64,000 nucleotides of DNA from Caenorhabditis remanei (Eukaryota > Nematoda > Chromadorea > Rhabditida > Rhabditidae), in contig NC_071331.1 of assembly GCF_010183535.1 (NCBI RefSeq), positions 10,354,001 to 10,418,000 of the forward strand. The letters run 5' to 3'. The notes under the pieces are model-generated. The model saw nothing but the letters and a program-made list of their open reading frames with translations, had not been told where the DNA came from and ran no database searches. Of this stretch, positions 259 to 54,130 are shown in pieces. Within the stretch, counting starts at the first letter, position 1. Each line of letters starts with the position of its first letter. Position numbers and translations under genes: made by a program.

Positions 259-3065
259 TTGACATGCAGATTCCTTTGCTCCACAAAAAGTGACGCCTCC
301 TGATATCCTAACGGTTTCTTCACCAACTTCTGAGATCTTAGACACAACAAAGCCATCGTTCCGAACAAATACTCCACATTCACGTTCTTCACTGAAGACG
401 TTTCCACTGGGGGTAAATTACATAAAACATGTTTCAACTCCTTGGTTGTCAGAAATAAATTCATGTAATGTCTCTTGCTGTCTTCACTTAATTCATCACA
501 TTTTGTCAGTGCAATGAGAATTGGTTTCTTGGTTTTCGATATTGATTTGGCGATGTTCAAGACATGATTCGAGTGGAGTGGGGAGTCCTTGGACACGGCA
601 CATGCTAGGATAAAGCCGTCGACGTTGAACTTTCCATCAGGGAGGAGGTGTTGGGGGAATTCAGATTCCAGACCGAGTTGTTCCTGCAAGAGATACAAAA
701 TTACCTATTGTAAGTCGAAATAGACTTTTTGATATACTAAAATCTATTTGTATTGTTTTTAATATTTTTTTTTGAAGATAGAGAGCTTACATTTTGTGCC
801 TCCATTATCAGAAACCAATTTTATTCATTTAAAAAAATGGCTGATTCACATTGTGTTTAAAACAGTTTTTGATACAAAAGTTCAATCCAAAGCGTCAGAG
901 AAGTTTGTTCTTTTATCGAAAAATCAACATTCGATGTCATTGACCATCCTACTATTTAAAAAATATTTCAATCTACAAATAAGAACAATCTGAAACAGTC
1001 AAATGCTAACTCACTTTCTGTATATACATCAACTTGTCCCGACTCTGTAAACTCGTCCTGCTGCATCTCTGACTGTAGTTTTCAGATTTCGAACATCCAG
1101 CGATGGTTTCGAACGTTTCGTCATCCAGGAATTCTGTAAATTAATATAAAATTCGGTTTCATACTGATTTGAAAGTCAGTGAAATATTGAAATAGGTGTT
1201 TCATGCGGAGTTGATTGCTAGATTGTTTTTGGTCAGTGAGATACCAAAGAAAGGGTTTCGCAGTGCGCTAACTTCGCACTAACTAAAAAAAAAGACAAAT
1301 CAGTACTGCGTTGATTTTTCGATTCCTAGAACGAACTATCTTGACGCAAGTTTATTCCTATGAAACTGTTAGCAAATACAGTAATTTTTTTTGAATTTTT
1401 GCAATATGCTTTGAGAAAAAATTTTCCGTTTCGCTGATGTGTGAAATCAAACTTTATTAGATGATCACTCAATGGGTTATTTGTAAACTTTATAACAGTA
1501 CCAACCCTTTGCATAACAGGGACTTGTGATCCGTGTTACCGATTCCTAGCCAACAAAAAAAACGGAAAGTTTACCAGAAAATTTAAAAATTGGCACGGTG
1601 AAAACTTCTTTACCATAACCATAAAGACCAACTACCCTGTGGCTTTCTGTTTCAATCACAGCTTTTATGATACTAACCTTCTAAGTTCTCAATACGGACA
1701 TATCATACAAAATTTACATTGTAAATCCATCTAACTGAAGCTTCTCCTCATTTGGTGATTTTTCAATTTTTCGGTTTCAGTTAAGTCTCGATTTTGAGTT
1801 TCATGCATAATGTATGATAAATGTTCCACGGCTTACCATTGGCACTGGGTCTGGGGATGAGTACTGAAATCGAACGCGGTCCACTAGACATTGGCGGCAA
1901 ATTCAAATTTCAATTTTTCTCAATTAGAATGTTTTGATACGCAGCTTAATCGACCACTTTTGAGCCGATTTATATCCATTTTCACGAATTTTTGGCCGGT
2001 TTTTCGACTGTCTCGTGCCTTTTCCAGATCAATTCTATTAAAAAAAAATTTTAACTTTTATTAAAAAATTAATTTTGAATTTCGCGCTAAAATTTTCGGC
2101 GATTTCAGCGGAACGCGTTATTTTCAGTACTGCTTCTCCAGACCCCGTGCATTGACAAAAAGTTGAAAAACCCCTTACCTGTCTGCTCGGCGACCCGAAT
2201 GACAACACTTGGAGTTGAACCCTCTGGACAGTTCAACAAACGACTTCCCCAGTATAACCAATGGTCTTTGTTGATGACTGGACTACCGCAGAAGTCTATC
2301 TGAAAATTATAAAGAGTAGAGATTGGCTTCAATTGATAGTTGTATTCTTAAACAGAAAGTGTGAGACAGCGAATAATTCGAATTCAGCAGCATCGAAATG
2401 TTATTTCACCATGCAAACTTCGTAATCCGGTAAACAGGAAACGGATATTTTTTTCAATACGTTTTTAGATTATCCTAAAAACTACCGTTATGTTTTCAAC
2501 TTGTAATTGAAAGACCTTTTCCAAATGTGCTTGTATTATCGTGTTGAGCTTAAAATTACATTCGTGTAATTACTTTTCACAGAACCTGCTAATGAAGTGG
2601 AGCATTTGAAACCGCTCGAAAATATTTTTAGATAAAATTTTAAAAATATGTGTTCCTTCTAATCTAGCATTAGTTATTATCAATTTTTTATCAAAATTAT
2701 TTGTCGATGTATCCTCACACTACTGTCCATATGTGAAATGTGGATAAGGTAAAACCACATTGAAACGGAAAACTCGAAGGAAAATTTGCTTTTTTTTCAT
2801 TTTTACTTTTCTCTTTCTCAGCGCTATTAAACTATCAGTATGTTGAAATACTTACTAGTCAACTTTAAACACCCTCCCCCCTTACCTGTGACAAAACCGA
2901 TGAATGTTCTCTATGAAATTCATCTGCTGCAGGTCGGACGAATCGATTGCAAAGAAGAGATTTCCCAACTCCAGACGGCCCTTTGACGGTTTCCGAACCA
3001 CTAACACCAACCACGATCACATTGATTTCTTTGATTTTGTTTGAGGTTGAAGAGGAAGAAGACAT
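259..3065 (-). CDS. p190 RhoGAP-like protein, N-terminal GTPase part (partial, 4 exons)
   Basis: Exons on the minus strand: 3065-2886, 2299-2179, 1133-1015, 683-259; phases 0, 1, 0, 2 join cleanly, and the gene runs off the left edge. The visible 281 residues match the N-terminal pseudo/GTPase domain of p190 RhoGAP (ARHGAP35/GRLF1 family). Seen: P-loop GPSGVGKS at residues 29-36, the family stretch [15 protein letters not shown] right after it, KDHWLYWG in exon 2, EQLGLE opening exon 4, base-recognition TKCD at 200-203 and ETSS at 234-237. In this family the GTPase domain precedes FF and RhoGAP domains, which would lie beyond position 1; the full protein would down-regulate Rho in the cytoplasm. 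Start at 3065 lies 14 nt after a TTTCCAG acceptor, a possible trans-splice site. Introns of 331, 1045 and 586 nt are noncoding, and two carry piRNA-type promoters. Confidence 0.9.
991..998 (-). promoter_or_regulatory. Ruby motif (CTGTTTCA), 21U-RNA promoter 1
   Basis: Exact core on the minus strand in an intron of the p190-like gene. TAGT puts the predicted 5' U at 951, 40 nt past the core, so the 21U product would be 951-931. Confidence 0.65.
1647..1654 (+). promoter_or_regulatory. Ruby motif, 21U-RNA promoter 2
   Basis: Exact CTGTTTCA in the 1-kb p190-like intron, antisense to the host gene. CAAT puts the predicted 5' U at 1693 (39 nt). Confidence 0.65.
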
Positions 3066-3885
3066 CCACGATTTACATGCTGGAAATGAACAGTTTAAGC
3101 AGAACATAATGGAAAAAGTGAAGAAAGAAATGAAGAGGCAATGAAAAAGCAACATTTATCATTTTGCACAATTGGTCTGTGTAAAATAAAAATGAATGAT
3201 CAGTTGAGATTTGATTTTAATATTTGTGCGAAACAGTTTTGTACGTAATTATATATGAATTCACAGCAGTAAGATGATAGTTTTATCGATTTCAGAAATC
3301 TCATTAGAGAATTCAGCGAAACTAGTTGATATTGGATCATCGAGTCCATTTAATTTGAAAATCATTCAGAAAAACAAGGACAGATGAGTGAGACAACGAG
3401 TAACAAAAAGTTTTTCCTGAAAATTGAAGACAATTCTATAGGTTACCATAGAAGAGCACGTAATTTTGAGACGTTTGAAACATTAAATATCTTTCAAAAA
3501 CCGTTTAAAGACAAAACAACAAATAGTGAGAACGAGGTTCGACGTTTGTTTTAATTTGCAGCAGCAGAGTGGGGCGAGGAGTAAGGTCCGCAACAAAAAT
3601 ATTTAAAATCAGACAGACATAAGACAAACAACCAAAAAAAAACCATCCTAAAACATCCTAAAACATCAACGAAAAAATTTCAGAAACTGAGCAACACTCG
3701 ATTAATCCGTGACCTCCGTGGGCAAGTGACTGTCTTCAAAATTCAGTTGGAAGAACTTCAGTACAATTACTAGAAAGAAATTGAAGAAATCAAATGTTAT
3801 TAGTATTCCGAAACAGAAAAAAAAACTGTTCAAAGGCGTAAAATTGTACTGTGTACTCGTAATATCTATGCCAATCAGTTAATTT

Positions 3886-3893
3886 CTGTTTCA
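3886..3893 (+). promoter_or_regulatory. Ruby motif, 21U-RNA promoter 3
   Basis: Exact CTGTTTCA. The nearest YRNT (TGGT) puts the U at 3935, 42 nt past the core, at the loose end of the spacing range. Confidence 0.55.
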
Positions 3894-4248
3894 AAGAAGG
3901 CTGATCCCTTGAAAGTTCGAATAACAAAAGTTGGTTCTTATCAAAACGAAATTTTCAGATGATCGGAAGAGAATAATAAGACAGCGGAAAAGCTTTTCCA
4001 GAAACAAAAATGATGATTCGATCATGCGACAGAAAATCAATTTAAGAGAAGATAAAATTGAAAGGGTGAACGATCACTATAGAAACACTTGTCAATAATA
4101 GAAAACGCGAAACAGGAAAAAAGGATTTCACAACTGTTAAGGAGCAAGTAACCAACAAATAAGCAGTAGAAACTGTGAATTCCGCACACACTACATAAAA
4201 ATAAGTTAATCTAATATGTAGAGAAATTGAAACATGATGCAAATTCTA

Positions 4249-4256
4249 CTGTTTCA
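4249..4256 (+). promoter_or_regulatory. Ruby motif, 21U-RNA promoter 4
   Basis: Exact CTGTTTCA. TAGT puts the predicted U at 4297 (41 nt), product 4297-4317. Confidence 0.6.
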
Positions 4257-4613
4257 ATACTGCAGGAAATAACATGAGATTTAGTAAATGATTTAGTAAA
4301 CCATTCAAAAAAAATGGAGAGCCTCAATTTTAAATGATTCAAAAAGTTTAGAAAATAAAAAAGGAAAACGTTGTTAACAGTCTTTTGCCAGGAGACAAAA
4401 AATACAAAAATATTCTCGAAGTAAGATTTTGAATCGCCGAAGTAACAAGGTTCATAGAAATTTAAATTACGATTACTAGTTCCAAATATCACTCATTCGA
4501 GAAAAATTTAGGGTATCAATGAAAAAAAATCGAGAAAAATAGAAATGGCAGGAAGTTCTCTTTAAGCCCCAATTATCGTAGGAACAGAAATCCGTGAACA
4601 CAAAAAAGCTTAT

Positions 4614-4621
4614 TGAAACAG
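4614..4621 (-). promoter_or_regulatory. Ruby motif, 21U-RNA promoter 5
   Basis: Exact core on the minus strand. CGAT gives a U at 4575 (39 nt); an alternative TAAT gives 4572 (42 nt). Confidence 0.6.
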
Positions 4622-6436: not shown

Positions 6437-7046
6437 AGGACATCTAACCTGGAATAAAGCCAAAAAATAGTTTGAAACCCACGCATTTTCTAGACGATTT
6501 GAAGAAATGAATTTATTTGAAGAATGAAAAGTTTCTATAACTATTTTTCCCGTGAACTCCTATTTCCCTATTTCGAAAATGGAAGGCAATGAAAGGCTTG
6601 AAAACCACGTTTTTTCACGTAGTGACCTATTTTCGAACTATTCTATCTAAAAAAAATAGACGGGCATCATCCGGGGAAAATTTCCAAGCGATCTGTGTAA
6701 GTTTCATTAAAAACGGTTCAGTACAGAAGGCGCTGGAGTCGGCGACAGACGGACAGACAAACGGATCTGCTGAATATTATTAGTAAAGATTGACGAAGAA
6801 ATAGAATTTCAAGTGAGCTGTGCGCAATTAATGTTCAAATTTGTCAACGCCAACTTCACTTTATAGTGAAAGAGAAAAATTTTAAACTTTCAGAAGTACA
6901 TATCTCTAAAATTTTTTTTACAGATTCAGAGAGCACGTATGTTAGTGAAAAACTAAAATGTTACACTTCGAAGTCAGAATGAGTTAGAAAATTAATTTGT
7001 CATGTGCCATAAAATTTTAAAATGGTTCAAAGCAATCCTTCAAACG

Positions 7047-7054
7047 TGAAACAG
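7047..7054 (-). promoter_or_regulatory. Ruby motif, 21U-RNA promoter 6
   Basis: Exact core on the minus strand, but no YRNT start signal at the usual distance. It may be inactive. Confidence 0.35.
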
Positions 7055-7303
7055 TTTTTTAACGCTGAAAAACTGAGAATCAGATAACGAGCCGTTAAAA
7101 ACGGCGAGTGTGCTCTAATGAGAAGGAAGTCTTTAACGACGTCATTCAAAAATAATGAGGCACTGATAACGTGCGAGAGTCGGTTACGTGTGGGCCAAGG
7201 TCAGTCGTGGGTCAGCTAGTAAGGAGCTTATACTCATTTTTGCAGACCTATTTTTAATGACCCATTAAAATTTCAAAGCACAATTTAAAATCAGTTAGTA
7301 ACA

Positions 7304-7311
7304 TGAAACAG
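7304..7311 (-). promoter_or_regulatory. Ruby motif, 21U-RNA promoter 7
   Basis: Exact core on the minus strand, just outside the 7316-7521 palindrome. TAAT puts the U at 7264 (40 nt). Confidence 0.65.
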
Positions 7312-8538: not shown

Positions 8539-8546
8539 CTGTTTCA
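8539..8546 (+). promoter_or_regulatory. Ruby motif, 21U-RNA promoter 8
   Basis: Exact CTGTTTCA. CATT puts the U at 8585 (39 nt). Confidence 0.65.
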
Positions 8547-8793
8547 TTGTTTCCGTGTAACACAATTTTTTGAATGAGAGTCATTCTGGCAACTTCATCA
8601 AAATATAATAGAAATAATTGTGTATACTGGAAGGTGTACATATTTGTTAATCGGAACAACACTCACAAGTTTTGAACAACACGCTCAACACAGGAATTAA
8701 TTAGTTTGTCTAATTCACTATTACAACACTTGGAAAGATTTGAAATATCCATGGGAAACAACTAGAAAAGTTATCAAACTAATTGCTTGCAAA

Positions 8794-8801
8794 CTGTTTC
8801 A
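8794..8801 (+). promoter_or_regulatory. Ruby motif, 21U-RNA promoter 9
   Basis: Exact CTGTTTCA. The only nearby YRNT (CAAT) is 48 nt away, so the start is doubtful. Confidence 0.4.
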
Positions 8802-9097
8802 AAGTCTATATTTAACACGCTTTTTAGTATGGGTTTGGATTCGTCCAATTTCCTAGTTTCTTCGGAAAACAATTTCACTGGGTCAACTAATAATTTCATC
8901 AGCTCGTTGTTTCAAGATTATTCTGTAACAGGGCATTTTGTGGACCTGGGTGATCAAGATAGGATTTTAATCGATATGAATCTACTCTAATCACTAGACG
9001 TTTCTGAAGAAAATAAAAACACTAGCAGTAAAAATTTACAAGTTTTTGAAATTTGAAATTTAGCAAAAACTGTAATGAAATAATTGTCTATATTCCG

Positions 9098-9169: not shown

Positions 9170-9950
9170 ATTCCGTTATATAAAAGTAGTACAATCAAAA
9201 AATATTTTTTGGAGAGAGCAATAGGAACATACTTTGCACGGAAACGCCATTCGACGATTTGAGCGAGTTTTAGCAAAAAGAAAACAATTGGAAGAGAGAA
9301 ATATCAGAGTCATCACATTTTGATTCATAGAATCAACAAAAATTAACAGTTATCAGGGCAATGAACGAAATCGATTTGCATGAATGAGTGATTATTTTTA
9401 TTTACCGTTTTATCACTTCCTCGTAACATAGTTTTTTTTTGTAAAAGTTACTTATTTAAATATATGTTCATATAAAACTGCTACCTTCAGAATGAAAACA
9501 ATAATCATGTTCCGGAAAGAAAACTTGGAAAAAACCCTCTTAATGAAGTAAAGTTTAGTGTTTCATGAATTTTTTGTAATTTTCATTCATATTTTGCTGA
9601 TTAGTACTATCATCAGCAATTTTGTTTCTATATTTGCTTTTTGGTATCCCAGACTGGCTCCCAATAGTTGTTCAATGAAATGAACAAAATTTTATCCTCA
9701 CTTCGAAACATTGAAACATTATTGAGACAGCATAACTCAATTTTCACTAGTGCCGTTTCAAGTATTTTGTATGAACTGTTTTTTGAATCAGAATATTACA
9801 ACCAGGAATCGAATTTCTAGAGGAAAAAAGGATAGATAGCAACAGATTTGAAATACAGAAGTTTTCAACTTTCTTTGCATAATAGACTTTGCAGAACAGA
9901 CAACAGATCAGTAGTGTCAAGTCATTGATAACCTGGACATAATTTGTTTC

Positions 9951-9958
9951 TGAAACAG
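9951..9958 (-). promoter_or_regulatory. Ruby motif, 21U-RNA promoter 10
   Basis: Exact core on the minus strand. CACT puts the U at 9913 (38 nt). Confidence 0.65.
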
Positions 9959-11779: not shown

Positions 11780-11787
11780 CTGTTTCA
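11780..11787 (+). promoter_or_regulatory. Ruby motif, 21U-RNA promoter 11
   Basis: Exact CTGTTTCA in the second copy of the segmental duplication. The other copies read CTGTTTTA at the same place. CATT puts a U at 11830 (43 nt). Confidence 0.45.
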
Positions 11788-13305
11788 CATTAAACATGAA
11801 TATTTTGACAAAAATCAAATAAAGAACATTCCGATTTTTTCATAACATTCCGATTTTTTCATGAAACCGATGCAAAAAAAGAAGTTACCGTAAATCGCGT
11901 AATTGAAGAACACCTGTACTATTGAAACGCCTCCAGGAATTTTGCACTTACGATTTCACGTTTTTTTAAATTCTTATCCTGTTGTTCTGAATATTCGTGC
12001 AAACTCGGTTTAATCTGACTTGCTGAATAAAGATGAAACATGGAAGGGGGCGGAAGTGGGAAAAAAGTGAAAAATACTATCCTTACAACTGGAAGTGTAA
12101 GAAGATCTGAATTTGTTCAAATCACAATTAGATGTCACCGGAAAATACACAATGAAAATAGCAACTCATAGAACTCCTGTAAAAAATAAACATGGATAGA
12201 ATGAGCAATATTTTGTTTTTGTGCCAGCAATGGCCTGTAATCGAACATGGAACACTTTCATTCTTTCCAGAAGCTAACAACTGACAAGATTCTGAAATTA
12301 TGCCACTAAAATAATACTAGAATTTTAATTTATACGAACACAGTTGCTTTCCCTCCCGAATAGAGTTTCTGTTTTACGGTCAACATGAATATTTCGAAAA
12401 ACCAAATAAATTATTCTTGAAATTAAAAAATGTTTATTTCACAAAGCCCACGATAGAAATTTTGAGGTCAAATAGGGATAGTGATTGCTAAACACGTTTA
12501 GATTACACATGTCTAGATCAAATATTTTGAAACAAAAAAAATTTTTTTAAAGGTTTTTCAACCGGATTTTTTTGTCACATTATAGGACCAAACATAGTTT
12601 AATCTATAACACGTTGTTGAAACCGGAAAGTGAATCTATCATGAAACCAATGCAAAAAAAGAAGATACCGTAAATTCTGTAATTGAAGCACGCCTGTAAA
12701 ATAAGAGCACCTTCAGAGCCTGTGTATTCGCTTACAATTTCACTTCTGTTAAAATCTCCCAATCCTACTTTCATCAAATATGAAGCATGTGTTCACAATA
12801 TAGACATGAACAGAATCAGTAATTTTTAAGTTTGCTTATGTAACCGATCCTATTTCTATTTTTCAGAAACTTAACAGTAATGAGCGAGTAAACTTCTCAA
12901 AACACGGGCGTGTTGCACAAAAATAATCTATTCTAAAATTCATAGGAATATACTTTTTTCCTTCACTTATTGAGTGACTGCTTTACTACCCACATAATAA
13001 TTTTGAAAACAATAAAATATTTTAATTCGTCCTATTAGCACGGGACGCTGCTCACAACCGCGCTCTACCGAAATCGAATAAAACATTGTGCGAAATTGAG
13101 AGACGTCAGAGAAAAAGAGATATTTCTGGAGGGGATTTCGGTGGAGCGCAGTTGCAAAGAACTGCTCCGAGCTGTAACTTTGCTTAATAATGCTCATATT
13201 TGAAATTTCGAGCACATATTGATCTCAGTGATATTGCTAGAAACGTTTAGATTACTGATTTACAGCCCAAATATGGAACAACAAAACTAATGTTTACAAT
13301 TTCAG

Positions 13306-13874: not shown

Positions 13875-13882
13875 CTGTTTCA
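13875..13882 (+). promoter_or_regulatory. Ruby motif, 21U-RNA promoter 12
   Basis: Exact CTGTTTCA. CAAT puts the U at 13920 (38 nt), upstream of the receptor gene. Confidence 0.65.
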
Positions 13883-14290
13883 AAAACTTATTATATATAA
13901 TCACAAAATTATATTTCAATCCAGCTCATGGATGTTCGTCGAAATCGTGGAAGGAGTTTTCTGTATTTTGTTGATGTTCACCTATAAATTTATTTCCTTT
14001 GGAGAATTATTCTCAATTCCTTGCAATTATTTTCAAACTCTCCCAAATTGTACATTGTACCCACATACATATATATATTTGTTCCAAATCTTACTAATCC
14101 CCTTGTCGCTGAAAAAACACTTCACCTGCCATTCCAACAAAACTCTATTATCACCTGCGTCGAGCTCAACATAACACTCTTAAATCTCCATGGTTACCTC
14201 TTCTGTTTTTCATTTATTTTTCGGTTTCAGTCGGGAGATTTCAGTCGTCGGGGTTTTTGTTCGCTGCTTCTTCCAGATCAAAAGGTACAA

Positions 14291-16407
14291 ATGATGATCG
14301 ATATTTGTGTTCCGTATGAAGATTTCGAGTACAATGTGGTTGGACATTGTGAGTTTTTATTTTTAAAGGCTTCTTTCTATTCGCACCAACTAACAAGTAT
14401 AAAAATCAACTGTTTCATAGAATCGGTAAAACTGCAAAATTCAAACATTCCTCTGTTATATAGTTCGTTCCACGACGACAATGCAATAAATCCATTCTTT
14501 CAGACCGTGGCTACTTCATCATTGCTGAGCACATTTTCATGATCTACCTCACTGTTTTATACTTCCGAATGCGTGCAAATAAGACACCGACTGAAATGTA
14601 TATCAGCAATTTGTGTGAGTTTATCAATTGGTACAGTGAAGAAGTTTTTGATAGCAAAAAATGTATGAAAATCTAATGGTAAGTGAGTCTTCGGTAAAAC
14701 TTCTGTTTCGAAACAGCAATTTGAGAAAATAAAATCTTAATATTTGTTCATCATGTTTCTATTCTCAGTAATCATCGCCTGGCCACTCCTCCCTATCCGA
14801 TTGATCAAAGCTGCATTCACTGCCTATTTCCCGCTGGAAGCATCCCAGAGGTATGTGAATTTTACGGTTACAAATAGGGCAACTAAATCAATGACGATAT
14901 TCGCAAATGGTATTCTCCAAGATTATTGGTCTCAATGTTCCAGCAACTTCCTATGTCTACTCATCCGCATCGAAACCACTCTCCAGTACACCTTCACTCT
15001 TGCCCATCTTCTGATGCTGAACTACTTCTCCCGCGAAGTCAGAGTACATAGATCTGTCAGTTTTGAGGCCACATCGAGAATGAGGTGAGAGGAGATAGGT
15101 TCACAAAATCCGGGGCGTAGTACTCGATTCATATGTGAAAAACTTAAAAAATTACTGACTAATTTAAAAAATTACTGACTGAAACAGAAAATAGCTCACA
15201 ATGTGTTTACATAAATTAGTAAGAGTCAACTGTTTCAATAAGAACTTATTTTTGTAACAACGAGTTTCATTTCAATAACACGTGATAAAACGCATGGAAT
15301 TTCAGAATTTCGCAGTAATTGTTATAAAAAAGAGGGAAGTGGAAATCGTATGCAAGAACGTCCCACCCTTAATATACACTTTTGAGCAAGGCTGTCTTAA
15401 AACAGGTCTAGCCGTTCGTTTAAGTGGGCTGTCATAACAAAATCTGGGTCGTTTATTCAAAAATGAATTCTGCAGTCTAGAAACCCTGGGCTGTAATTAA
15501 GTTTTGAGTCTGTGAGTACCCTATACAGAATTCCGCGCCCGACCATTGAAAATTCTTGCTTTTGACCCATTAGTTGTTTAAAAGTAAAATAAAAACTTTT
15601 CATGTTTCATAAAATTTTCAAAGTTCCTATTTTTCGAGTTCACCAATAGTTCGCGCGTTTCGAAAACCCAATTACACCCAAATTTCAGAAAAACCCTCCA
15701 CTGCTTCAATTTATACTCCCTCATCACCTCAATTCTATTTGTAAATCTTCAAATTTCATCTGGAATTGTGAAAGTGTTCAGTTGTATTTATGCACTTTCA
15801 TTCGTTGTCTGCCTACCAATCTACCTGATCTCTCATTTTGTGGTTTGTGTTTTTACCTGAAAAATGACTAAAAACGGAATGGAATTCAGGCTCTCATCAA
15901 AAGCACCTGCAAACGATTCCTACGTAAGAAAGATGGCGATGAGAATCATTTCAGTTTTTTATGGTTTTATATTTTACAGTTTTTAGCTACAATGGCACAT
16001 ATTTATCACTTTTGTGAGTTCTTCCAGTCTCTCGGATTATCGAAATTTTTAAAATTCAAAAAACACAAAAATAACTGTTTCAAAGTGATCATTAGATGCA
16101 TTGAAGTTTTTAGATATTGCTAACGCTCCTCATACCATGCAATTTTCCAGGCGTCATCCAAACATTCCTAATCCCTGCCATATTTCCCCAATTCGCCAGT
16201 GACTATCTCATAACATTTCGTTATGTGACGGGCGTCCTAGCTGTCCGTTTCATGGTTTCCATAATTTTCGCTTCGGGACCCTTGATCCTTCTCCCACCGA
16301 TTCGACGACAGATATTCAGACCGATTTTGAAGAGAAAACAGGATAGAGTGGCGGCTGCTCCCGAATTGAGATCCGCTGAGCAGATTCAAGTGTCGTTTGT
16401 GAATTAA
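14291..16407 (+). CDS. Nematode 7TM serpentine receptor-like protein (8 exons, 287 aa)
   Basis: Exons 14291-14348, 14504-14614, 14769-14850, 14944-15084, 15689-15842, 15890-15923, 15987-16013, 16151-16407; 864 nt, and every junction joins in phase. The protein has a short extracellular N-terminus and seven hydrophobic segments: GYFIIAEHIFMIYLTVLYF, about residues 54-75, FLCLLIRIETTLQYTFTLAH, LITSILFVNLQI, FSCIYALSFVVCLPIYLISH, a segment with VIQTFLIPAIF, and VRFMVSIIFASGPLILLPPI. It ends in a basic cytoplasmic tail. The layout fits Caenorhabditis chemoreceptor-type GPCRs acting at the plasma membrane, often in sensory neurons; I cannot assign the sr subfamily. At 287 aa it is slightly short for these families. 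Start choice: first ATG after a TTCCAG acceptor; an ATG one codon later is also possible. An AATAAA lies at 16451. Three introns hold 21U-type promoters. Confidence 0.85.
14410..14417 (+). promoter_or_regulatory. Ruby motif, 21U-RNA promoter 13
   Basis: Exact CTGTTTCA in intron 1 of the 7TM gene. TGTT puts the U at 14457 (40 nt). Confidence 0.6.
15180..15187 (-). promoter_or_regulatory. Ruby motif, 21U-RNA promoter 14
   Basis: Exact core on the minus strand in intron 4 of the 7TM gene, diverging from promoter 15. No YRNT at the usual spacing. Confidence 0.4.
15230..15237 (+). promoter_or_regulatory. Ruby motif, 21U-RNA promoter 15
   Basis: Exact CTGTTTCA in intron 4 of the 7TM gene. CAAT puts the U at 15276 (39 nt). 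Confidence 0.65.
16075..16082 (+). promoter_or_regulatory. Ruby motif, 21U-RNA promoter 16
   Basis: Exact CTGTTTCA in the last intron of the 7TM gene. YRNT only at 36 nt (16118) or 45 nt (16127). Confidence 0.45.
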
Positions 16408-17600: not shown

Positions 17601-18116
17601 GCTTTCCAAATCCCCTAGAATGCACTTCCTCATTCCCACTGATTCACCAAATGTCTCAATTTGCATAAATGAGAATGACCCTGTTCTTAATTGCATTCCC
17701 ATAGCCATCAGAGAAAACGAAGCCCAGCTGACAAACCATTTCTCGAAATACCTCAATATATCCGGTCGGATATGAACAAGAAGCAGAAGACGTTGAAAAG
17801 AATAAGAAGAAGACGGTAATCATCGGTCAAATGACCGTTGAAACGACGAAAGCAGTGGCATAACAAAAGCCTTACGAGGCGAAAGTTTGGATGAGGCGAC
17901 GAGAAAATGAGAAGGAGAGGAGGAGGAGGTCAGAATTGAACCCTCTCTCTTCATAAAACCATTTCACTTTCGAGACGAACTTTCTGTTTGGATATACGCC
18001 TGCTTATTCGGGAATTCCCTTTCTGCTTATGTTAGCTATGCGTTTCTTTGTTAGAATCTGGTGGCTGCTGAGGCTTATCAATAGAAATCTGACATTTTTT
18101 TGGAAGCGACTTTTCT

Positions 18117-18124
18117 CTGTTTCA
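18117..18124 (+). promoter_or_regulatory. Ruby motif, 21U-RNA promoter 17 (tandem family A)
   Basis: Exact CTGTTTCA followed by AGATAACTAACTTCCAC. CAAT puts the U at 18162 (38 nt); predicted product 18162-18182. Confidence 0.7.
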
Positions 18125-18930
18125 GATAACTAACTTCCACGTTAATACATTTTTGTAGCAATATAACAGGTATGATGATTAAAGATTTTGATCATTATGA
18201 CAACTAGATAATAACTTTTTGGAAATGATTCTTCTATTGTACAAAGTTTACTTCCACAATAACGCGTTTTTGTAGCAATGAGGTTGCATGTAACTTGAGA
18301 TCAAAATTGTAACTAGGTAATAACCAAATCCGCGCTGATTTTTTCACAAGTTGATAGATGTGTGTTCAAAGTAAATGAGCCAATTTCCTTAATGGAAACA
18401 GTAACATCCGGAATCGACCTTCTCATTTCTTGGAAAACTCCTTGTGCAGTTTTCTAATTCTTTTTCTGTTGTACAAGGTCAAATTTGAACCCATCTCTCT
18501 CTTCATAAAACCATTTCACTTTCGAGTCGAACTTTCTGTTTGGATATACGCCTGCTTATTCGGGAATTCCCTTTCTGCTTATGTTAGCTATGCGGTTGTT
18601 TTTCTTTGATAGAACCTGGTGGCTGCTGATGCCCCTCACAAGAAACTCTGACATTTTTTTGAAATAATTCTTCTGTTCTACAAAACTTACTTCCGAAACA
18701 ATACGTTTTAGTTGGAATGTGGTTTCTTCCCAAAATACGAACAACATGGTAACTAGGTAATAACCACCTCTTCCGCGTTGATTTTTCCCAAGCTGCCAGA
18801 TGCCTGTTCGAAGTAAATTAGTCGATTTCCCTGAATATCTCTGAAATCAAAATGAGTCTTATGGTTGTTGAAAAAAACTGTGCTTGACATATAAATACCT
18901 ATTTAGTCAAATATTTTGAAAGGGTGTTAT

Positions 18931-18938
18931 CTGTTTCA
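18931..18938 (+). promoter_or_regulatory. Ruby motif, 21U-RNA promoter 18 (tandem family B)
   Basis: Exact CTGTTTCA in the second promoter-bearing segment. At the expected distance the bases read GAAT, which fails the Y position, so activity is uncertain. Confidence 0.45.
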
Positions 18939-19573
18939 CGCAGTGGTTGAATATTTCGAACGAATAGCACCAAGAATTAGGTCGTAAAGATTGGATCATG
19001 AGTTATTTTTCTTTTTTTCAAGTGCTCGTCAGGGAAATATTTTTCGAGTGTTCATCTGATATTCAGTCAGTTTATTTCAAAGTTTGAGTTTAACACGTCA
19101 TATCCAAAAGCATATTAGTTTTTTAAACTATGGTATGGAAACAGTGATTTCCGGTTTCGACCTTCTCCTTTTTTGGAAACTCTTTTTGCATTTTTCTAAT
19201 CCTCATTCTCTTTTACAATAGTCATATGGTCATATTTGAACCTTCTCTCTTCATAAAACCATTTCACTTTCGAGACGAACTTTCTGTTTGGATACACGTC
19301 TGCTTATTCGGGAATTCCCTTTCGGCATATGTTCTTTGTTAGAATCTGATGGCTGCTGAAGCTCTTCACAAGAAATCTGACATTTTTGAGAAATAACTTT
19401 TCTCTGATTCAGATAACTAACTTCCACAAAAAAGCACATCTGTTGCGTTGTGATTGCACTGGACGTTGGATCAACTCGGTAATTAGGTATTCTAAAGATG
19501 CCATATTCCTGTTCACAGTAAATTAGCCGATTTTCCTGAAGTAAAATAGTAAAATAAGTTGAAAGGATTATAT

Positions 19574-19581
19574 CTGTTTCA
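19574..19581 (+). promoter_or_regulatory. Ruby motif, 21U-RNA promoter 19 (tandem family B)
   Basis: Exact CTGTTTCA. TGGT puts a U at 19616 (35 nt). It lies only 83 nt before promoter 20. Confidence 0.45.
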
Positions 19582-19656
19582 TGTAGCGGTTGGGTTCTTT
19601 TTTGTTAGAACTTGGTGGCACAAGAAATCTGAAATTTTTTGGAAGTGACTTTTTTT

Positions 19657-19664
19657 CTGTTTCA
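19657..19664 (+). promoter_or_regulatory. Ruby motif, 21U-RNA promoter 20 (tandem family A)
   Basis: Exact core with the same downstream 38 nt as promoter 17. CAAT puts the U at 19702; the product differs from promoter 17 after the third base. Confidence 0.7.
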
Positions 19665-20192
19665 GATAACTAACTTCCACATTAATACATTTTTGTAGCA
19701 ATATGACTGGCAGGCTATATTAAATATTTCGAACAAATAGCACTAAGGATTGGTTCTGAAAAAATCGATCGTTATTGTTCCCCGGTTTTCATGTGCTCAA
19801 GGAAATATATTTTGAGTGTTCGTGTCTGATATTGAGTCATTTTATCTCCCTCTTCGGAGATTGCTTATCGTTTCCACAAACATAATAGTTTTTTTAAACA
19901 ATGATATGGAAACGGTAATTTCCGGTTTTGACCTTCTCATTTTTCAAAACTCTTTTTGCGTTTTTTCATCCACTTTCTGTTCTATAATAATTTTGTCAAG
20001 GCCAAACTTGAACCCATCTCACTTCTCTACATAAAAGTATTTCACTTTCGAGACGAACTTTTTGTTTGGATATACAGCTGCTTATTCGGGAATTCCCTTA
20101 TGTTAGCCATGCGGCTGTCTTTCTTTGTTAGAATCTGGTGGCTGCTGATGCCCCTCACAAGAATTCTGAAATTTTTTGGAAGTCACTTTTCT

Positions 20193-20200
20193 CTGTTTCA
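20193..20200 (+). promoter_or_regulatory. Ruby motif, 21U-RNA promoter 21 (tandem family A)
   Basis: Exact core, same family. CAAT puts the U at 20238 (38 nt); predicted product 20238-20258 is unrelated to those of promoters 17 and 20. Confidence 0.7.
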
Positions 20201-20272
20201 GATAACTAACTTGTACAATAATATATTTTTGTTGCAATTTGATTTTCGTCAAATATATTGAAAGGATGATAT

Positions 20273-20280
20273 CTGTTTCA
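20273..20280 (+). promoter_or_regulatory. Ruby motif, 21U-RNA promoter 22 (tandem family B)
   Basis: Exact CTGTTTCA. The copy aligns with promoter 18 and likewise lacks a Y at the start signal. Confidence 0.45.
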
Positions 20281-21363
20281 TTTAGCGGTTGAATATTTCG
20301 AACAAATAGCACCAAGGATTGGATCGTAAAATGGGTTATTTTTATTGTTCCCGGTTTTCAAGTGCTCAAGGAACAACTTTTTTGAATTTTCATGTCTGAT
20401 ATTGAGTCATTTTATCTCACCATGTTTGAAAATAACTTATTATTCCCACAAACATAATGGTTTTTAACCATGATATGGAAACAGTGATTTCCGTATTCAA
20501 CCTTCTCATTTAAAAATTCTATCTGCTTATGTTAGCTTTGCATATGTCTGTGGCTGAGCCCAACGCTGTTTTTTTTACTTCAATTTTTGAGCATTCTGCA
20601 ATATCTCTGCAAGGTTGATAGTGTCATCGATAACTGAGCAACTGTGATCATCGTTTCAATTAGGGGAATTTTACTTTACCAAATTAGGAAAATTCCGAAA
20701 CAGTGTCATGTGAATTTTTTTTGATGTTCCAACTACACATCTTCATAATTTATTCCGCGATCCGGCCTTACAGTCAGGAACTTTTATTGGCAAGACACTG
20801 TAACTACTTTTTCTTTCCAAAAGGGAAAACTCATATTTTTTATACAGGAAACTTTGTTCCGTATTATTGTTATCGATTCAGTTACTAATCATCAAGTTAT
20901 TATGGATACCTAACACTAAAAACATATCTCCACAGTTCTTCACCAAAGCATGCAACTATACTTTTCCCTTTTTTATGGATATTTAATCGGTTTCGAAAAC
21001 TCATTTTCTGATTTGGTTTTCTGTGCTCTATATTGCCTCTTGCCTCAGACATTTGTACTCTTCTCAAAAACATACCCATCGCCATTACTTGCTAACAATT
21101 CCTCATTATCAACGAGAATACACTACGAGTGACAGTAGATAGAAATTGGTGACTGCTTCAAAAGTTCTATGACATTGACCACTCCTTCCCATTTTTAATA
21201 ACTTTTCTTTATCAATTATTGTGAAGAGAAGGTTAGGCCGGCCGGGTTAGAGTCCGGTAACCGCCTCAATCCCTAAGCTGATGCACCAGTTGTATGTTTG
21301 GGTATGCTAGAGAGAGAACACGTTGTACCAATTCACATCTTTATTAGAGGTCTTTGACAGATC

Positions 21364-31106: not shown

Positions 31107-34100
31107 ATGATACTAATCCTGCTTCTCCTCACTATCTTTTTCTCCCTGTCATCTTCTACTCCAACCAACACAACCCACAAACCACCATCCCAACTTCACC
31201 ATTTCGAAATCAACCATCCCGATGGAATCAATGCGATTTTTGACCTTTTGCCAAAGGTAGGTTCTTTTTCGAACGCAATTCTACTCATATAAGACTAATG
31301 TGGGTGCTTTACATAAAAAAATTTGACAGATTTGAAAAACAGTGAGAAAAAGATATTACGCTTATAAATCTTTACCCTTTTTCCAGGATTTGTTGAATTT
31401 CGGCTGTGCCTAAATGACATCAAAGGTGGACTAAACTCAACTCTGATATTTCCATAGAATAATGTATGTGTACATGTGAGTTCATTTTCATATCGAAAGA
31501 ATTTTTAAATTCGGTCTGAAACCCGCTGAGAGCGATCGCCGGTGAGTTTGGACATTTCGGTGGCCTAGAAATTCGACGTCGGCCATGTTTTTTCAAACTT
31601 TGTCGGTATTTGCGCTTATTTTTGTTGTGTTCTTTCAATAATTTTGAAAGTAAACGGCAAAAATTGATAGAATTATTACAAAAATGTTAGAAAAAAACCG
31701 AAAAAACCAATATGTTCGAAAAAAGTTCTAAAATGTTCCACGGCTACTGAAATGCCCAAACTGTTTTGCCGCTTGTTCTCAGCGGGGGTTGGACTAAATT
31801 GAAAAGGTCTTTCGATATGATAATGAACTCACGGAAATGAACAAATGAACATACGTCCGAAGTCAAATTTCTGGGGCTCAACGCCAATTTTCACCGGCCA
31901 GCGAAGTGCCCAAACTCACCGGCGATCGCTCTCAGCGGGTTCCAGACCGAATTTAAAAATTCTTTTGATATGAAAATGAACTCACATGTACTCATACATT
32001 ATTCTATGAAAATATCAGAGTTGACTTTAGTCCACCTTTCATTCTTGCTGTATGAAAAAATACGAATAAAAAATCTACTGAGGCTTGTGAGATCGAAAAT
32101 TGTTGAAAGTTTTGAGAATTTTTTTAAATAGAAATCGCCATACATCACGATGTTATCAACGGATGGAAATCGTTGTTCTCTAAAATTGCTGATTGAAACG
32201 TTATAACTTTCCTTCTAAAAAAACAAAACTAACTTTTCGAATAAAGATTTTCCCTCGCTTCCATTCTCAACCGCATCCAACGTTTCCCTTTTCCAGGTGT
32301 GCAAGAAAAACGGGAAATCCTACAAAGTTGGCGAAGAGTTCGACGTGGGAAACCTCCGTTACACTTGTCAGGAATTCGGTGTCTACGTGATTGCCGGATG
32401 TCGGACACACACTGGAAAACCACTGAAACTCGGAGATATCGAAGTGATTGATCACGTGAAATTCCATTGTTTGGCTCATGGAACATCTGTTTATTATCGA
32501 GAGACTGCGTGTGGACAGAAGGGAGAAGTCGATTGTGATAAGGTTCCGTTGCCACGTGGGTATGAGCAGGCTGTGCAGAATGAGGTATGAATGAAAGAAT
32601 GTAAACAATTTAAAACATTTCAATTGAGCAAGTACTGCTTATGAAACAGATGTTTCTAGAAAATAGACTGTTTGGCATAAATTTAAAATATGTAGTATGT
32701 GGAGTTGGACGCAGCGAACATGTTTGGGATTTAAAATTTGTTTTTTTTACTGTTTCATATAGCGCGTATTTAGAACCATTGAGTTGAAACAATGTTCCAG
32801 AGGATTCAGTTAGTGCACAGTCTCCCAGTCTCCCAAAAACAACTGCAAGGAAATTTTTGATCTACTCACACAAAACGAAAATTTTGAGAAATTTGCAGGT
32901 CTAAAACTGTATTACTTTAATTTTTAGCGTAAAGCTCAAGGTCGGAAGTAAGAAAATTTCAGTTTTAGAATTATTCTGACTGCATTATCTACCTATTCAA
33001 TGCAAAAAATCCTGGTTTCAGATTTTATTTCAGGTCGAAATGGCAGTTTTTCATTTTCGATTTCATTAAAATCTATCAGCGTTTTCAATTCTCAATATTA
33101 TCAAACAAATGATAGCTTAAAACATGCGCCAGAAATTTTTAAACATTTTTGATGGATGGCACCAAATTTGGCTCAGTAGTTTTCGAGAAATCGATCAAAT
33201 TCCGAAAATTTTGTGGTTTTTTGTTATTTTCTCAAAAATTACTGAGCCAAATTTGGTGCCATCCATCAAAAATGTTTAAAAATTTCTGGCGCATGTTTTA
33301 AGCTATCATTTGTTTGATAATATTGAGAATTGAAAACGCTGATAGATTTTAATGAAATCGAAAATGAAAAACTGCCATTTCGACCTGAAATAAAATCTGA
33401 AACCAGGATTTTTTGCATTGAATAGGTAGATAATGCAGTCAGAATAATTCTAAAACTGAAATTTTCTTACTTCCGACCTTGAGCTTTACGCTAAAAATTA
33501 AAGTAATACAGTTTTAGACCTGCAAATTTCTCAAAATTTTCGTTTTGTGTGAGTAGATCAAAAATTTCCTTGCAGTTGTTTTTGGGAGACTGGGAGACTG
33601 TGTAGTGTGCAAAATAACTACAGCCAACAATTTTTTATTGGAATGTATGAACTAAATTAGTTAAAATCACCACTTATATAAAAGTACGATTAAAACATAC
33701 TTTCATAGCTAGAAAACTTAATGAAGTACAATAAAACCGCGGAAAAAAGGCACACGAACTGTTTAATTTTGGTGCGGAGTTTTATTATCCACTCGAAAAA
33801 CGGAAAAGTAGGTTTGGGTCGTTTTAATTTTTTGTAACACAAGCATAAGAAGAATAGGAGCATAATGAATATCTACTGATTTTAAATAATTGCTCTAAGC
33901 TTTGTCAAAAACCTGAAACATTAAAGTTTACCTTTTGAAATCCTCGATTTTGACTGAAAGTCTGCTAGTATACTATAAACGGTATTTCTTTGTTTTTTCA
34001 AAAGATCGTGACCGCGCCCCACCAAAAATCATATCTTAATAAATCCTAATTTTATCGTTGCTTCATATAACTGTTTCGAGACTGTTTTAACTGTTTCGAG

Positions 34101-36105: not shown

Positions 36106-36630
36106 GGGTTTTAGAGTTTGAATATCACATGAATTGTGTCAGTTTCACTACACTCATTATGATTTAGATTCATTTCAAGAGAGTATTATGACCAGGCTTT
36201 TTTTTAAAGCTTTCTTTTGAAAACTTGGCAGTTTATCAAGATTGGTAAATTGTAAATCATACGAACGTATTTACCTCAGGGACACTTATAGAAAACCTTA
36301 TTAACGATCGGAGAGGTATAACGTCAGAAAGGAAGCAATTCTCACATTCAGAAATAACACCATTCAAAGTCAGATGTTGAAATACTCAACAAAGCACCAC
36401 TAACAGATTTTATTGAAGACCATTGTATAGGTATCAAAAAACCGTAAATATATCAAACTAATTGAGATTAACGCGAGACCTGTAAAATATTTGGAATTAT
36501 ACTAATTTAGGTTGTTTCTAAAAATCTCAAACACTTTGAAAACTATAATTGTTTTTATTTTGAAAGTAACACTATATCAAATCAATAGTGTAACAATACA
36601 CAATGACTAATTGTGTACTTACTACATAAC

Positions 36631-36638
36631 TGAAACAG
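36631..36638 (-). promoter_or_regulatory. Ruby motif, 21U-RNA promoter 29
   Basis: Exact core on the minus strand between the MIG-18-like gene and the satellite. TGTT puts the U at 36592 (39 nt). It is the last core before a 16-kb gap. Confidence 0.6.
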
Positions 36639-48900: not shown

Positions 48901-49607
48901 GAGAAAAAAGAAATAATGAGAGAATGAAAATACAGATGTTCTCGATCATCTCCTATTGAGATGAGAGAAAAAAGAAATAATGAGAGAATGAAAATACAGA
49001 TGTTCTCGATCACCTCCTATTGAGATGAGAGAAAAAGAAATAATGAGAGAATGAAAATACAGATGTTCTCGATCACCTCCTATTGAGATGAGAGAAAAAA
49101 GAAATAATGAGAGAATGAAAATACAGATGTTCTCGATCACCTCCTATTGAGATGAGAGAAAAAAGAAATAATGAGAGAATGAAAATACAGATGTTCTCGA
49201 TCATCTCCTATTGAGATGAGAGAAAAAAGAAATAATGAGAGAATGAAAATACAGATGTTCTCGATCATCTCCTATTGAGATGAGAGAAAAAAGAAATAAT
49301 GAGAGAATGAAAATACAGATGTTCTCGATCATCTCCTATTGAGATGAGAGAAAAAAGAAATAATGAGAGAATGAAAATACAGATGTTCTCGATCACCTCC
49401 TATTGAGATGAGAGAAAAAAGAAATAATGAGAGAATGAAAATACAGATGTTCTCGATCACCTCCTATTGAGATGAGAGAAAAAAGATAAAAGAGAGAATG
49501 AAAATACAGATGTTCTCGATCACCTCCTATTGAGATGAGAGAAAAAAGATAAAAGAGAGAATGAAAATACAGATGTTCTCGATCACCTCCTATTGAGATG
49601 AGAGAAA
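36964..49607. repeat. 64-bp satellite array, about 197 copies, 12.6 kb
   Basis: Unit of 64 bp containing GAGAATGAAAATACAGATG, TTCTCGATCACCTCCTATTG and AGATGAGAGAAAAAAGAAAT. Copies differ mainly at three sites: AAAGAG or AATGAG, GATGGTC or GATGTTC, GATCACC or GATCATC. Within each unit TTCTCGATC can pair imperfectly with GATGAGAGAA. Since 64 is not a multiple of three, minus-strand ORFs run through all three frames in three units (64 residues) and are not genes. The first unit (TATAGTTG) and the last three (AAAAGATAAAAG or GAAAGTAAG) are diverged, as expected of array edges. Confidence 0.97.
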
Positions 49608-52724: not shown

Positions 52725-52732
52725 CTGTTTCA
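52725..52732 (+). promoter_or_regulatory. Ruby motif, 21U-RNA promoter 30
   Basis: Exact CTGTTTCA. TATT puts the U at 52772 (40 nt). Confidence 0.6.
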
Positions 52733-53632
52733 GAAATTTGAAAAATAAAAGGAACTCAACTTATTAAGTATTAGTCATCGGTTTTGACACACAAAAACCA
52801 GAAATCAAAAAGTATGTGCCACAAAACTAAAAAACATGAGAATTTTCATTTTCAGAAAATAAAACAAGAAAATAGAAATTAAGATCACCGATCTATCTGG
52901 GTTCTGAATTTATATGAGTTAATATTTCAGATTGGTTCTTTTTCAGAGATGTATTTTCTCATAAGGAAGATTTGAATAAAAACAGTTTCAGCTTGGTAGT
53001 AAATCTCAGGTCATTATACATGACTGATGCTCTTAGTTAGCGTGTTGACAAATAGAGTAGAATCTATGATTATCTGATGGGTAATGTTATTTAAGACAGT
53101 TTGACGTCTATCAAATTTTCACGGTTTTCAGAATTTATGAAATGAAGATTTGTTGTGCGACGATCAATGCATGACTATTCTACCTATCCATAGTTTTGAT
53201 TTTCCTGTTCGAGGAATTATTCGTTGTGAGTAACTATACATTTATAAAGTTGTAAGAACGCTTTATTAATTCTTGAACGAATCCTAGAGTTTTCAACATT
53301 TACCAAATAACAGAAACCGTTACAGTTCCATATTATTCACAATTCTTAATTTTCAATGATATAGATTGACGAGTGCCAACTTCGCCTTTATAGTAATAGT
53401 CTTCACAGTTCACGTCTGCCATTAGAATTATGATGGTAATCTGGAGAAAAAACGATTAAAAAGGAAAACCTCTACGAATTTTTTACGGCTTTCAGAAGTT
53501 ACCAAAAAAGGAATTGGTCAGCTGAGATCAGTTTTAAAAGCATAGATTCGAAAAGTATCTTCCTGATTTCTTTAAGAAATTAACTTTTTTTCAAAAATAT
53601 TTTTGGAAGTTTTTCAAATGTCAGAGAATTTA

Positions 53633-53640
53633 CTGTTTCA
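53633..53640 (+). promoter_or_regulatory. Ruby motif, 21U-RNA promoter 31
   Basis: Exact CTGTTTCA. TGAT puts the U at 53678 (38 nt). Confidence 0.6.
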
Positions 53641-53849
53641 TATTTTTGGTATAAACCGAGGAAAAAAAAGCAACTGATTCGATACCTACTTTCGCCAAGT
53701 TTTTTACGAAAGGTTCACAAAATATAACCCTTTTTTCCCTATAGATCTGAAAAGAAGAGCCGAATTAGAGTTTTTCTGTTTCTATAACTCAATGAAGCTT
53801 TCGAAGTAATGTTCGAAAACGTTTGTTCTGTCAAAGTATTGAAGAGTGA

Positions 53850-53857
53850 CTGTTTCA
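53850..53857 (+). promoter_or_regulatory. Ruby motif, 21U-RNA promoter 32
   Basis: Exact CTGTTTCA, about 217 bp after promoter 31. TAGT puts the U at 53896 (39 nt). Confidence 0.65.
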
Positions 53858-54122
53858 ATTGGATAGTAAATTGTTGTGTTTTTCGAATGAGGTAGTGCTG
53901 TTCGCATAAGCCCTCATTTTATTTTAAACGGTTCCCACAAATTAGGATTTGGCGATCTAAGAATAGTCATTCAATAATCGAAAGGTATCAAGCACTATTG
54001 TAGTTCGATTCAAACAATTGGCCTCTTTAGGGATGTCATTTGCAACACAAAACTAGGGAAAAACACACAATTTTTCGGAATATGAAGGATTCTGGAGGAA
54101 GCATCTCAAACAGTAGCCGTTA

Positions 54123-54130
54123 CTGTTTCA
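54123..54130 (+). promoter_or_regulatory. Ruby motif, 21U-RNA promoter 33
   Basis: Exact CTGTTTCA. TGAT puts the U at 54167 (37 nt). Last core before the retroelement-like segment. Confidence 0.6.

What the first reader, a model, noticed from the sequence alone, without database searches (positions are those of the whole stretch)
991..54130. A piRNA (21U-RNA) gene cluster marked by 33 Ruby motifs
The exact core CTGTTTCA occurs 33 times on either strand (22 plus, 11 minus) in the first 54 kb, 12.6 kb of which is satellite without any. With about 18% each of C and G, chance predicts one to two. In C. elegans this core is the promoter element of type I 21U-RNA genes, bound by the USTC complex (PRDE-1, SNPC-4, TOFU-4, TOFU-5), and such genes cluster on chromosome IV. 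The window thus appears to be part of a germline small-RNA factory laid over ordinary genes.
Basis: partly seen in the sequence, partly recalled or inferred. Interest (0 to 1): 0.9.

Follow-up and report, generated by a model that had tools for sequence, protein, structure and literature searches.

The report
Worm piRNA gene cluster, chromosome IV
This stretch of a roundworm chromosome appears to hold some 25 to 30 of the tiny one-promoter genes that make germline piRNAs, built as in the laboratory worm C. elegans: a known kind of cluster, seen here in a less-studied relative.

Summary
CTGTTTCA occurs 34 times in the window (33 in the stated range, one more at 57715) against 4.6 in shuffles. 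The window is 10.35-10.42 Mb of contig C4; the six large contigs have the published chromosome lengths of Caenorhabditis remanei PX506, C4 being chromosome IV.

The density is local: 0.66 per kb outside the satellite, 0.15 genome-wide, 0.09 in 15 sparse samples of IV. Tagged sites run at 5.0 per Mb on IV, 0.6-0.8 on other chromosomes.

The decisive sequence test is phasing: the YRNT start signal peaks at a 38-nt spacer, as in C. elegans, in 10 of 34 window sites (background 2.6) and 15 of 35 in five dense samples (background 2.4). Composition around the predicted starts fits too.

So this is very probably part of a type I piRNA cluster, with about 25-29 perfect-core genes. No small-RNA reads were available. 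C. remanei 21U-RNAs are known, so the kind is not new. Fresh are the map and a local array of duplicated promoter units, some with decayed cores.

The parts
931..998 (-). core 991-998 + predicted 21U 931-951
   Evidence: YRNT at spacer 39
1647..1713 (+). core + predicted 21U 1693-1713
   Evidence: YRNT at 38
3886..3955 (+). core + predicted 21U 3935-3955
   Evidence: YRNT at 41
4249..4317 (+). core + predicted 21U 4297-4317
   Evidence: YRNT at 35 and 40
4555..4621 (-). core 4614-4621 + predicted 21U 4555-4575
   Evidence: YRNT at 38 and 41
6989..7054 (-). core 7047-7054, weak start
   Evidence: no YRNT at 35-42; a T at 37
7244..7311 (-). core 7304-7311 + predicted 21U 7244-7264
   Evidence: YRNT at 39
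8539..8605 (+). core + predicted 21U 8585-8605
   Evidence: YRNT at 38
8794..8860 (+). core, weak start
   Evidence: T at 38, no YRNT at 35-42
9893..9958 (-). core 9951-9958 + predicted 21U 9893-9913
   Evidence: YRNT at 37 and 40
11780..11850 (+). core + predicted 21U 11830-11850
   Evidence: YRNT at 42
13875..13940 (+). core + predicted 21U 13920-13940
   Evidence: YRNT at 37
14410..14477 (+). core + predicted 21U 14457-14477
   Evidence: YRNT at 39
15121..15187 (-). core 15180-15187, weak start; back to back with 15230
   Evidence: T at 38, no YRNT at 35-42
15230..15296 (+). core + predicted 21U 15276-15296
   Evidence: YRNT at 38
16075..16141 (+). core + predicted 21U 16121-16141
   Evidence: YRNT at 35 and 38
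17927..20526 (+). local array of diverged duplicate units carrying 6 intact cores and at least 2 copies with decayed cores
   Evidence: self-comparison, 74-89% identity; alignments; the 904-bp probe 17927-18830 gave no match outside the array
18117..18182 (+). core + predicted 21U 18162-18182 (array copy A1)
   Evidence: YRNT at 37
18931..18997 (+). core (array copy B1), weak start
   Evidence: T at 38, no YRNT at 35-42
19574..19581 (+). core (array copy B2), no T at 35-42: probably inactive
   Evidence: inactivity is inference
19657..19722 (+). core + predicted 21U 19702-19722 (array copy A2)
   Evidence: YRNT at 37
20193..20258 (+). core + predicted 21U 20238-20258 (array copy A3)
   Evidence: YRNT at 37 and 42
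20273..20339 (+). core (array copy B3), weak start
   Evidence: T at 38, no YRNT at 35-42
28622..28689 (-). core 28682-28689 + predicted 21U 28622-28642
   Evidence: YRNT at 39
28880..28945 (+). core, weak start
   Evidence: T at 37, no YRNT at 35-42
29158..29224 (-). core 29217-29224 + predicted 21U 29158-29178
   Evidence: YRNT at 35 and 38
30082..30148 (-). core 30141-30148 + predicted 21U 30082-30102
   Evidence: YRNT at 38
32584..32649 (-). core 32642-32649 + predicted 21U 32584-32604
   Evidence: YRNT at 37
32750..32816 (+). core + predicted 21U 32796-32816
   Evidence: YRNT at 35 and 38
36572..36638 (-). core 36631-36638 + predicted 21U 36572-36592
   Evidence: YRNT at 35 and 38
52725..52792 (+). 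core + predicted 21U 52772-52792
   Evidence: YRNT at 39 and 42
53633..53698 (+). core + predicted 21U 53678-53698
   Evidence: YRNT at 37 and 42
53850..53916 (+). core + predicted 21U 53896-53916
   Evidence: YRNT at 38 and 41
54123..54187 (+). core + predicted 21U 54167-54187
   Evidence: YRNT at 36
   Evidence: YRNT at 39

Best explanation
The window is part of a type I piRNA (21U-RNA) gene cluster on chromosome IV of Caenorhabditis remanei. Each functional CTGTTTCA core is the promoter element of one tiny gene. By analogy with C. elegans, the upstream-sequence complex (PRDE-1, SNPC-4, TOFU-4, TOFU-5) binds the core; RNA polymerase II starts at the purine of a YR initiator about 36 nt after the core, makes a short capped RNA, and pauses and ends in the A/T-rich stretch beyond the 21U; the cap and two bases are removed to leave a 21-nt RNA with 5' U for the Piwi protein PRG-1. 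Shown here: motif excess, clustering on chromosome IV, phased start signal, composition profile. Inferred from C. elegans and C. briggsae: protein binding, transcription, processing, silencing. About 25-29 of the 34 perfect cores are probably real genes; single-mismatch cores may add up to some 30 more, on weaker evidence.
For: Excess of cores: 34 against 4.6 shuffled; 0.66 per kb against 0.093 in 150 kb of sparse chromosome IV samples (p 6e-11). Phasing: YRNT at a 38-nt spacer in 10 of 34 window sites (background 2.6 per position, p 2e-4) and 15 of 35 sites in five dense 10-kb samples (background 2.4, p 4e-9); anywhere at 37-39 in 23 of 34 against a mean of 7.8 and 28 of 35 against 7.2. In the window no other triplet of positions among 82 exceeds 13 of 34; with near-duplicates collapsed, 24 of 65 at 38 against 4.7. 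The offset is that of C. elegans: spacer about 35-42 nt, G of the core most often at -44 (PMC3597512, passages). Among 51 of 69 sites with the start signal at 37-39: spacer 72-75% A+T, first ten bases after the start T 60%, +21 to +28 75%, background 64%, in line with the pausing model (PMC6436959, passages). Of the six large contigs only C4 is enriched. Contig lengths equal C. remanei PX506 I, II, III, IV, V and X (PMC10461856 Table 1, passage). 21U-RNAs of C. remanei have been sequenced and have largely the features of those of C. elegans (PMC6468775, passages).
Against: No small-RNA or chromatin data were available. Seven of 34 cores lack YRNT at spacers 35-42, one of them lacking any T there. 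The sparse chromosome IV samples also show some excess of start signals (6 of 14 at 37-39 against 2.7; 2 of 14 at 38, p 0.22), so they are not a clean negative control. Split by sub-region, the peak at 38 is clear only in 28-37 kb (p 0.0014), marginal in 1-12 kb (p 0.04) and not significant in 12-22 kb and 52-58 kb (p 0.24 and 0.30, 11 and 5 sites). A PRG-1 gene was not pinned down.
Confidence: 0.95

Rival explanations
1. The word is a binding site for another factor (for example forkhead proteins) or a compositional bias of chromosome IV, without piRNA genes.
For: Forkhead proteins are reported to bind a CTGTTTCA-containing probe in vitro (PMC3597512, passage).
Against: It predicts no start signal at a fixed 38-nt spacer and no low-melting stretch just after a 21-nt unit; both are found in aggregate. 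The reversed word is rarer, 6,781 against 19,000 genome-wide.
Confidence: 0.02
2. The sites ride on a dispersed repeat or transposon that happens to contain the word.
For: Some sites elsewhere do lie in repeats: identical matched strings recur on C4 and on other contigs, and six window sites lie in a local array.
Against: Collapsing similar flanks leaves 31 of 34 window sites, and the phasing stays. The array probe has no match outside the array (that search scores only the best candidates, so it is not proof of absence). The satellite contains no core. Copy number of the flanks of the other window sites was not searched one by one.
Confidence: 0.02
3. A decayed cluster: former piRNA genes that no longer make RNA.
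For: Local density is moderate compared with the 23.1-23.95 Mb domain, and two of five aligned A-type array copies have lost the core.
Against: 23 of 34 sites keep a start signal at 37-39 against 7.8 by chance, not far below the 28 of 35 of the dense samples.
Confidence: 0.04

Closest known systems
C. elegans type I 21U-RNA clusters, chromosome IV 4.75-7.5 and 13.5-17.5 Mb (coordinates as given in PMC9683057, passage)
   Same: Core CTGTTTCA, modal spacer 38 nt, YRNT start, A/T-rich spacer and downstream stretch, both strands, chromosome IV.
   Different: Here the tagged sites fall in four stretches of chromosome IV (about 1-5, 6-12.8, 18.6-20.5 and 23.1-23.95 Mb), the first partly repeats, rather than two.
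C. briggsae piRNA clusters (PMC9683057, passages)
   Same: Same Ruby core, YR initiator, A/T-rich flanks.
   Different: C. briggsae has a cluster on chromosome I as well as two on IV; here C1 (chromosome I) is at the level of the other non-IV chromosomes in tagged sampling.
Pristionchus-type dispersed piRNA genes (PMC6436959, passages)
   Same: Short single-promoter piRNA genes with an upstream motif.
   Different: Those are not clustered and lie within introns of active genes; here the sites are concentrated on one chromosome.

Membership tests
type I 21U-RNA genes | CTGTTTCA core in excess over chance | tested here: met
   34 against 4.6; 7-fold over sparse chromosome IV samples
type I 21U-RNA genes | start T with YR before it, 35-42 nt after the core, mode 38 | tested here: met
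   in aggregate: 27 of 34 have YRNT at 35-42 against 14-20 of 34 in twelve other 8-wide windows; peak at 38
type I 21U-RNA genes | A/T-rich spacer; low-melting stretch after the 21U | tested here: met
   in aggregate over 51 of 69 sites of window plus dense samples; not tested for significance or for the window alone
type I 21U-RNA genes | clustering over megabases on chromosome IV | tested here: met
   5.0 tagged sites per Mb on C4 against 0.6-0.8 on C1, C2, C3, C5, C6
type I 21U-RNA genes | 21-nt 5'-U RNAs bound to PRG-1, lost in prg-1 and prde-1 mutants | not testable with these tools
   no reads at hand
type I 21U-RNA genes | USTC occupancy and H3K27me3 chromatin | not testable with these tools
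   no chromatin data
type I 21U-RNA genes | Piwi-clade Argonaute (PRG-1) in the genome | tested here: inconclusive
   67 Piwi-domain matches; of these only two loci, L033 and L041, were compared with solved structures, and both scored best against Argonaute chains; PRG-1 not identified
type II 21U-RNA genes | lack of the Ruby core | tested here: not met
   the sites described are defined by the core; motif-less type II loci were not looked for

The most novel reading that the evidence does not exclude
New 21U-RNA genes arise by local duplication of promoter units. The 17.9-20.5 kb array is a snapshot of their birth and death: in three of five aligned A-type copies the core and a start signal survive while the predicted 21U sequences have already diverged, and in two the core has mutated. 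On a large scale this would refill clusters with ever-changing piRNAs and help answer the question, called open in PMC9683057 (passage), of how worm piRNA genes arise.
Probability: 0.4. Interest if true: 0.5.

Novelty: new member of a known kind. Interest (0 to 1): 0.3.

Why it matters
It places probable piRNA domains of an outcrossing Caenorhabditis on its chromosome assembly from sequence alone, shows that the promoter geometry of C. elegans (38-nt spacer) is kept, and gives predicted 21U starts that small-RNA libraries could check at once. The local array offers a testable route for turnover of piRNA genes.

Tried and rejected
Chance and composition: rejected by shuffles, by the reversed-word control and by phasing. 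Repeat-borne motif: made unlikely for most window sites. Rfam (gathering threshold) and tRNA scans of the window: no match. Finding PRG-1 through Piwi-domain loci: 67 matches, two loci (three queries) compared with solved structures, inconclusive. Pfam on 30 open frames of the window, some overlapping: UNC-93 in three, DUF1759 in one, four sub-threshold matches in two others, nothing in the remaining 24; most of the 271 open frames of 55 aa or more were not scanned, so gene boundaries, and whether each core is intergenic or intronic, stay unresolved. Female-type core ATGTTTCA: 16 in the window, 0.31 per kb against 0.15 in sparse samples but 0.10 in dense ones, so no clear enrichment. Ten variants picked after seeing their phasing are not used for the estimate.

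Limits of the map. Listings were cut at 100 of 110 and 100 of 112: C5 and C6 may be undercounted by up to ten, and C4 beyond 23.95 Mb is unseen. One search listed only the first 100 of 19,000 places and was used for its totals and for eight C1 loci. Repeated strings were not removed from the tallies, and six rows on small contigs (one: five) were left out of its per-chromosome rates. The dense samples (L011, L012, L014, L017, L025 of 20) were picked as those with 4 or more cores; one of their 36 cores, too near an end, was dropped. The C1 control had 12 rows, only 8 distinct sites, from 24-50 kb of that contig.
Full report
What was checked. Dinucleotide shuffles give a mean of 4.6 and at most 12. 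Among the 40 8-mers shown as most over-represented against a second-order Markov expectation, this word is the first that is neither G/C-rich nor, by my reading, part of the 73-bp tandem arrays.

Where it lies. The window is C4:10354001-10418000 of a 130,466,896-bp genome in 186 contigs. Contigs C1 to C6 have the lengths 17,247,545, 19,935,723, 17,877,849, 25,790,997, 22,502,457 and 21,501,900, which equal chromosomes I, II, III, IV, V and X of C. remanei PX506 in Table 1 of PMC10461856 (passage). The species is therefore C. remanei and the chromosome IV. By that table the window lies in the low-recombination centre of IV (8.6-17.1 Mb).

Genome-wide density. There are 19,000 cores in the genome and 6,781 of the reversed word. 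The window has 0.66 per kb outside the satellite. Twenty 10-kb samples of chromosome IV hold 0 to 11 each; five with 4 or more (at 2.8, 4.0, 6.4, 9.6 and 19.4 Mb) average 0.72 per kb and the other fifteen 0.093. To map sites over all chromosomes, the core plus four fixed bases some 20 bases away was searched. On C4 lay 21 of 51, 26 of 55 and 82 of the 100 listed of 110. Summed, that is 5.0 per Mb on C4 against 0.60-0.81 on C1, C2, C3, C5 and C6 (ten rows unlisted, six rows on small contigs left out, repeats kept). With the flank TTA before the core, 30 of 35 and 97 of the 100 listed of 112 are on C4, while the reversed controls gave 0 and 4 in the whole genome. Over the five searches, 1-Mb bins of C4 show sites at 1-5, 6-12.8, 18.6-20.5 and 23.1-23.95 Mb; bins 0, 13, 14, 17, 21, 22, 24 and 25 hold none, bin 5 one, bins 15 and 16 together seven (for nothing beyond 23.95 Mb was listed). 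The 1-5 Mb stretch contains several identical strings and is partly repeats.

Phasing, the decisive test. In C. [quoted passage not shown] a YR dinucleotide lies 3 and 2 nt before the start T (PMC9683057, passages). I counted YRNT at each spacer from 3 to 109 nt. In the window the peak is at 38: 10 of 34 against a background of 2.6 (p 2e-4); at 37-39 together 23 of 34 sites against a mean of 7.8. In the five dense samples, independent of the window and chosen by density alone, 15 of 35 at 38 against 2.4 (p 4e-9), and 28 of 35 against 7.2. Collapsing similar flanks leaves 24 of 65 at 38 against 4.7. In the sparse samples there are 2 of 14 at 38 (p 0.22) and 6 of 14 at 37-39 against 2.7, a weak excess that leaves room for a few real genes there. 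Eight distinct C1 sites show 1, 0 and 2 at 37, 38 and 39, too few to judge. Within the window the peak is clear by itself only at 28-37 kb.

Composition around the predicted start. Over 51 of 69 sites with the start signal at 37-39, A+T is 72-75% in the spacer, 60% in the first ten bases after the start T, 68% in the next ten, 75% at +21 to +28 and 66-67% further on; the background is 64%. High then low melting is the pausing signature described for nematode piRNA genes (PMC6436959, passages; A/T-rich downstream motifs in C. briggsae, PMC9683057, passage). I made no significance test of this profile.

How many genes. From density, 51 kb at the sparse rate of 0.093 per kb would give about 5 cores, leaving about 29. 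From phasing, 23 of 34 against 7.8, with the dense-sample rate as a ceiling, gives roughly 25. Cores with one mismatch number 137 in the window, 62 of them with YRNT at 37-39 against a mean of 32.8; but another triplet of positions reaches 51, and the sparse samples show 68 of 255 against 53.9 with another triplet at 69. So up to some 30 further genes, on weak evidence.

A local array. From 17.9 to 20.5 kb the sequence consists of diverged duplicates, 74-89% alike, carrying six intact cores. Of five aligned A-type copies, three keep CTGTTTCA with YRNT at 37 and have different predicted 21U sequences, and two read CTGTTCTA and CTGATTCA. The three B-type copies keep the core but lack YRNT at 35-42, one having no T there at all. 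A 904-bp probe (17927-18830) matched only inside the array (the tool scores only its best candidates; the B-type copies were not probed). This looks like local birth and decay of piRNA promoters. PMC9683057 calls the origin of new worm piRNA genes an open question (passage); one search for tandem duplication together with 21U-RNA terms showed no paper on this point by title among the eight listed of 14 (listing only).

What is known. C. remanei 21U-RNAs have been sequenced; C. [quoted passage not shown] elegans, C. remanei and C. brenneri in 2-3 times larger numbers (PMC6468775, passages). Clusters of C. elegans (IV) and C. briggsae (I and IV) are published (PMC9683057, passages). I saw no map of C. 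remanei clusters on the chromosome assembly in four listings, and PMC10461856, on the C. remanei chromosomes, does not contain the word piRNA in its main text; most subscription papers are not held, so a map may well exist. The roles of USTC, PRG-1 and Pol II pausing are taken from the papers named and were not tested here.

Verdict. A real feature, correctly read by the first stage: very probably a stretch of a type I piRNA cluster. It is a new member of a known kind; the window adds a map position, predicted 21U starts and a small duplication array.

Noticed in passing
36964-49607: Satellite of 198 copies of a 64-bp unit, 97% matches, with strong A and G strand bias and no Ruby core.
   Followed up: no
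59270-61561 minus: 764-aa open frame with DUF1759 (E 7e-8), a domain I recall from BEL/Pao retrotransposons; the surrounding G+C-richer 56-64 kb has one Ruby core only.
   Followed up: no
55640-56866: Inverted pair of tandem arrays of a 73-bp unit with a tRNA B-box-like stretch (my reading), flanked by GGCCGG-rich repeats in inverted orientation; ARAGORN and Rfam find nothing.
   Followed up: partly
50200-51358 minus: UNC-93-like gene over three adjacent open frames.
   Followed up: no
C3 and C4 left arm, 1.5-4.5 Mb (outside the window): One 34-base string with a Ruby core recurs eight times on C3 and C4, so a dispersed repeat may carry the piRNA core; another 33-base string recurs nine times on C5, C6 and small contigs.
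   Followed up: no
C4:19.45, 19.48, 20.20, 23.59, 23.64 and 23.68 Mb (outside the window): Six pairs of cores on opposite strands, starting 30 bases apart and pointing away from each other, as 15180/15230 do in the window at 50 bases: possible bidirectional piRNA promoters. The search pattern itself favours this geometry, so the frequency is not measured.
   Followed up: no
1-36 kb and 52-58 kb: Variant cores CTGTTTCG, CCGTTTCA, CAGTTTCA and CGGTTTCA show more YRNT at 37-39 than background in window plus dense samples, suggesting tolerance at the second and last base in C. remanei.
   Followed up: partly
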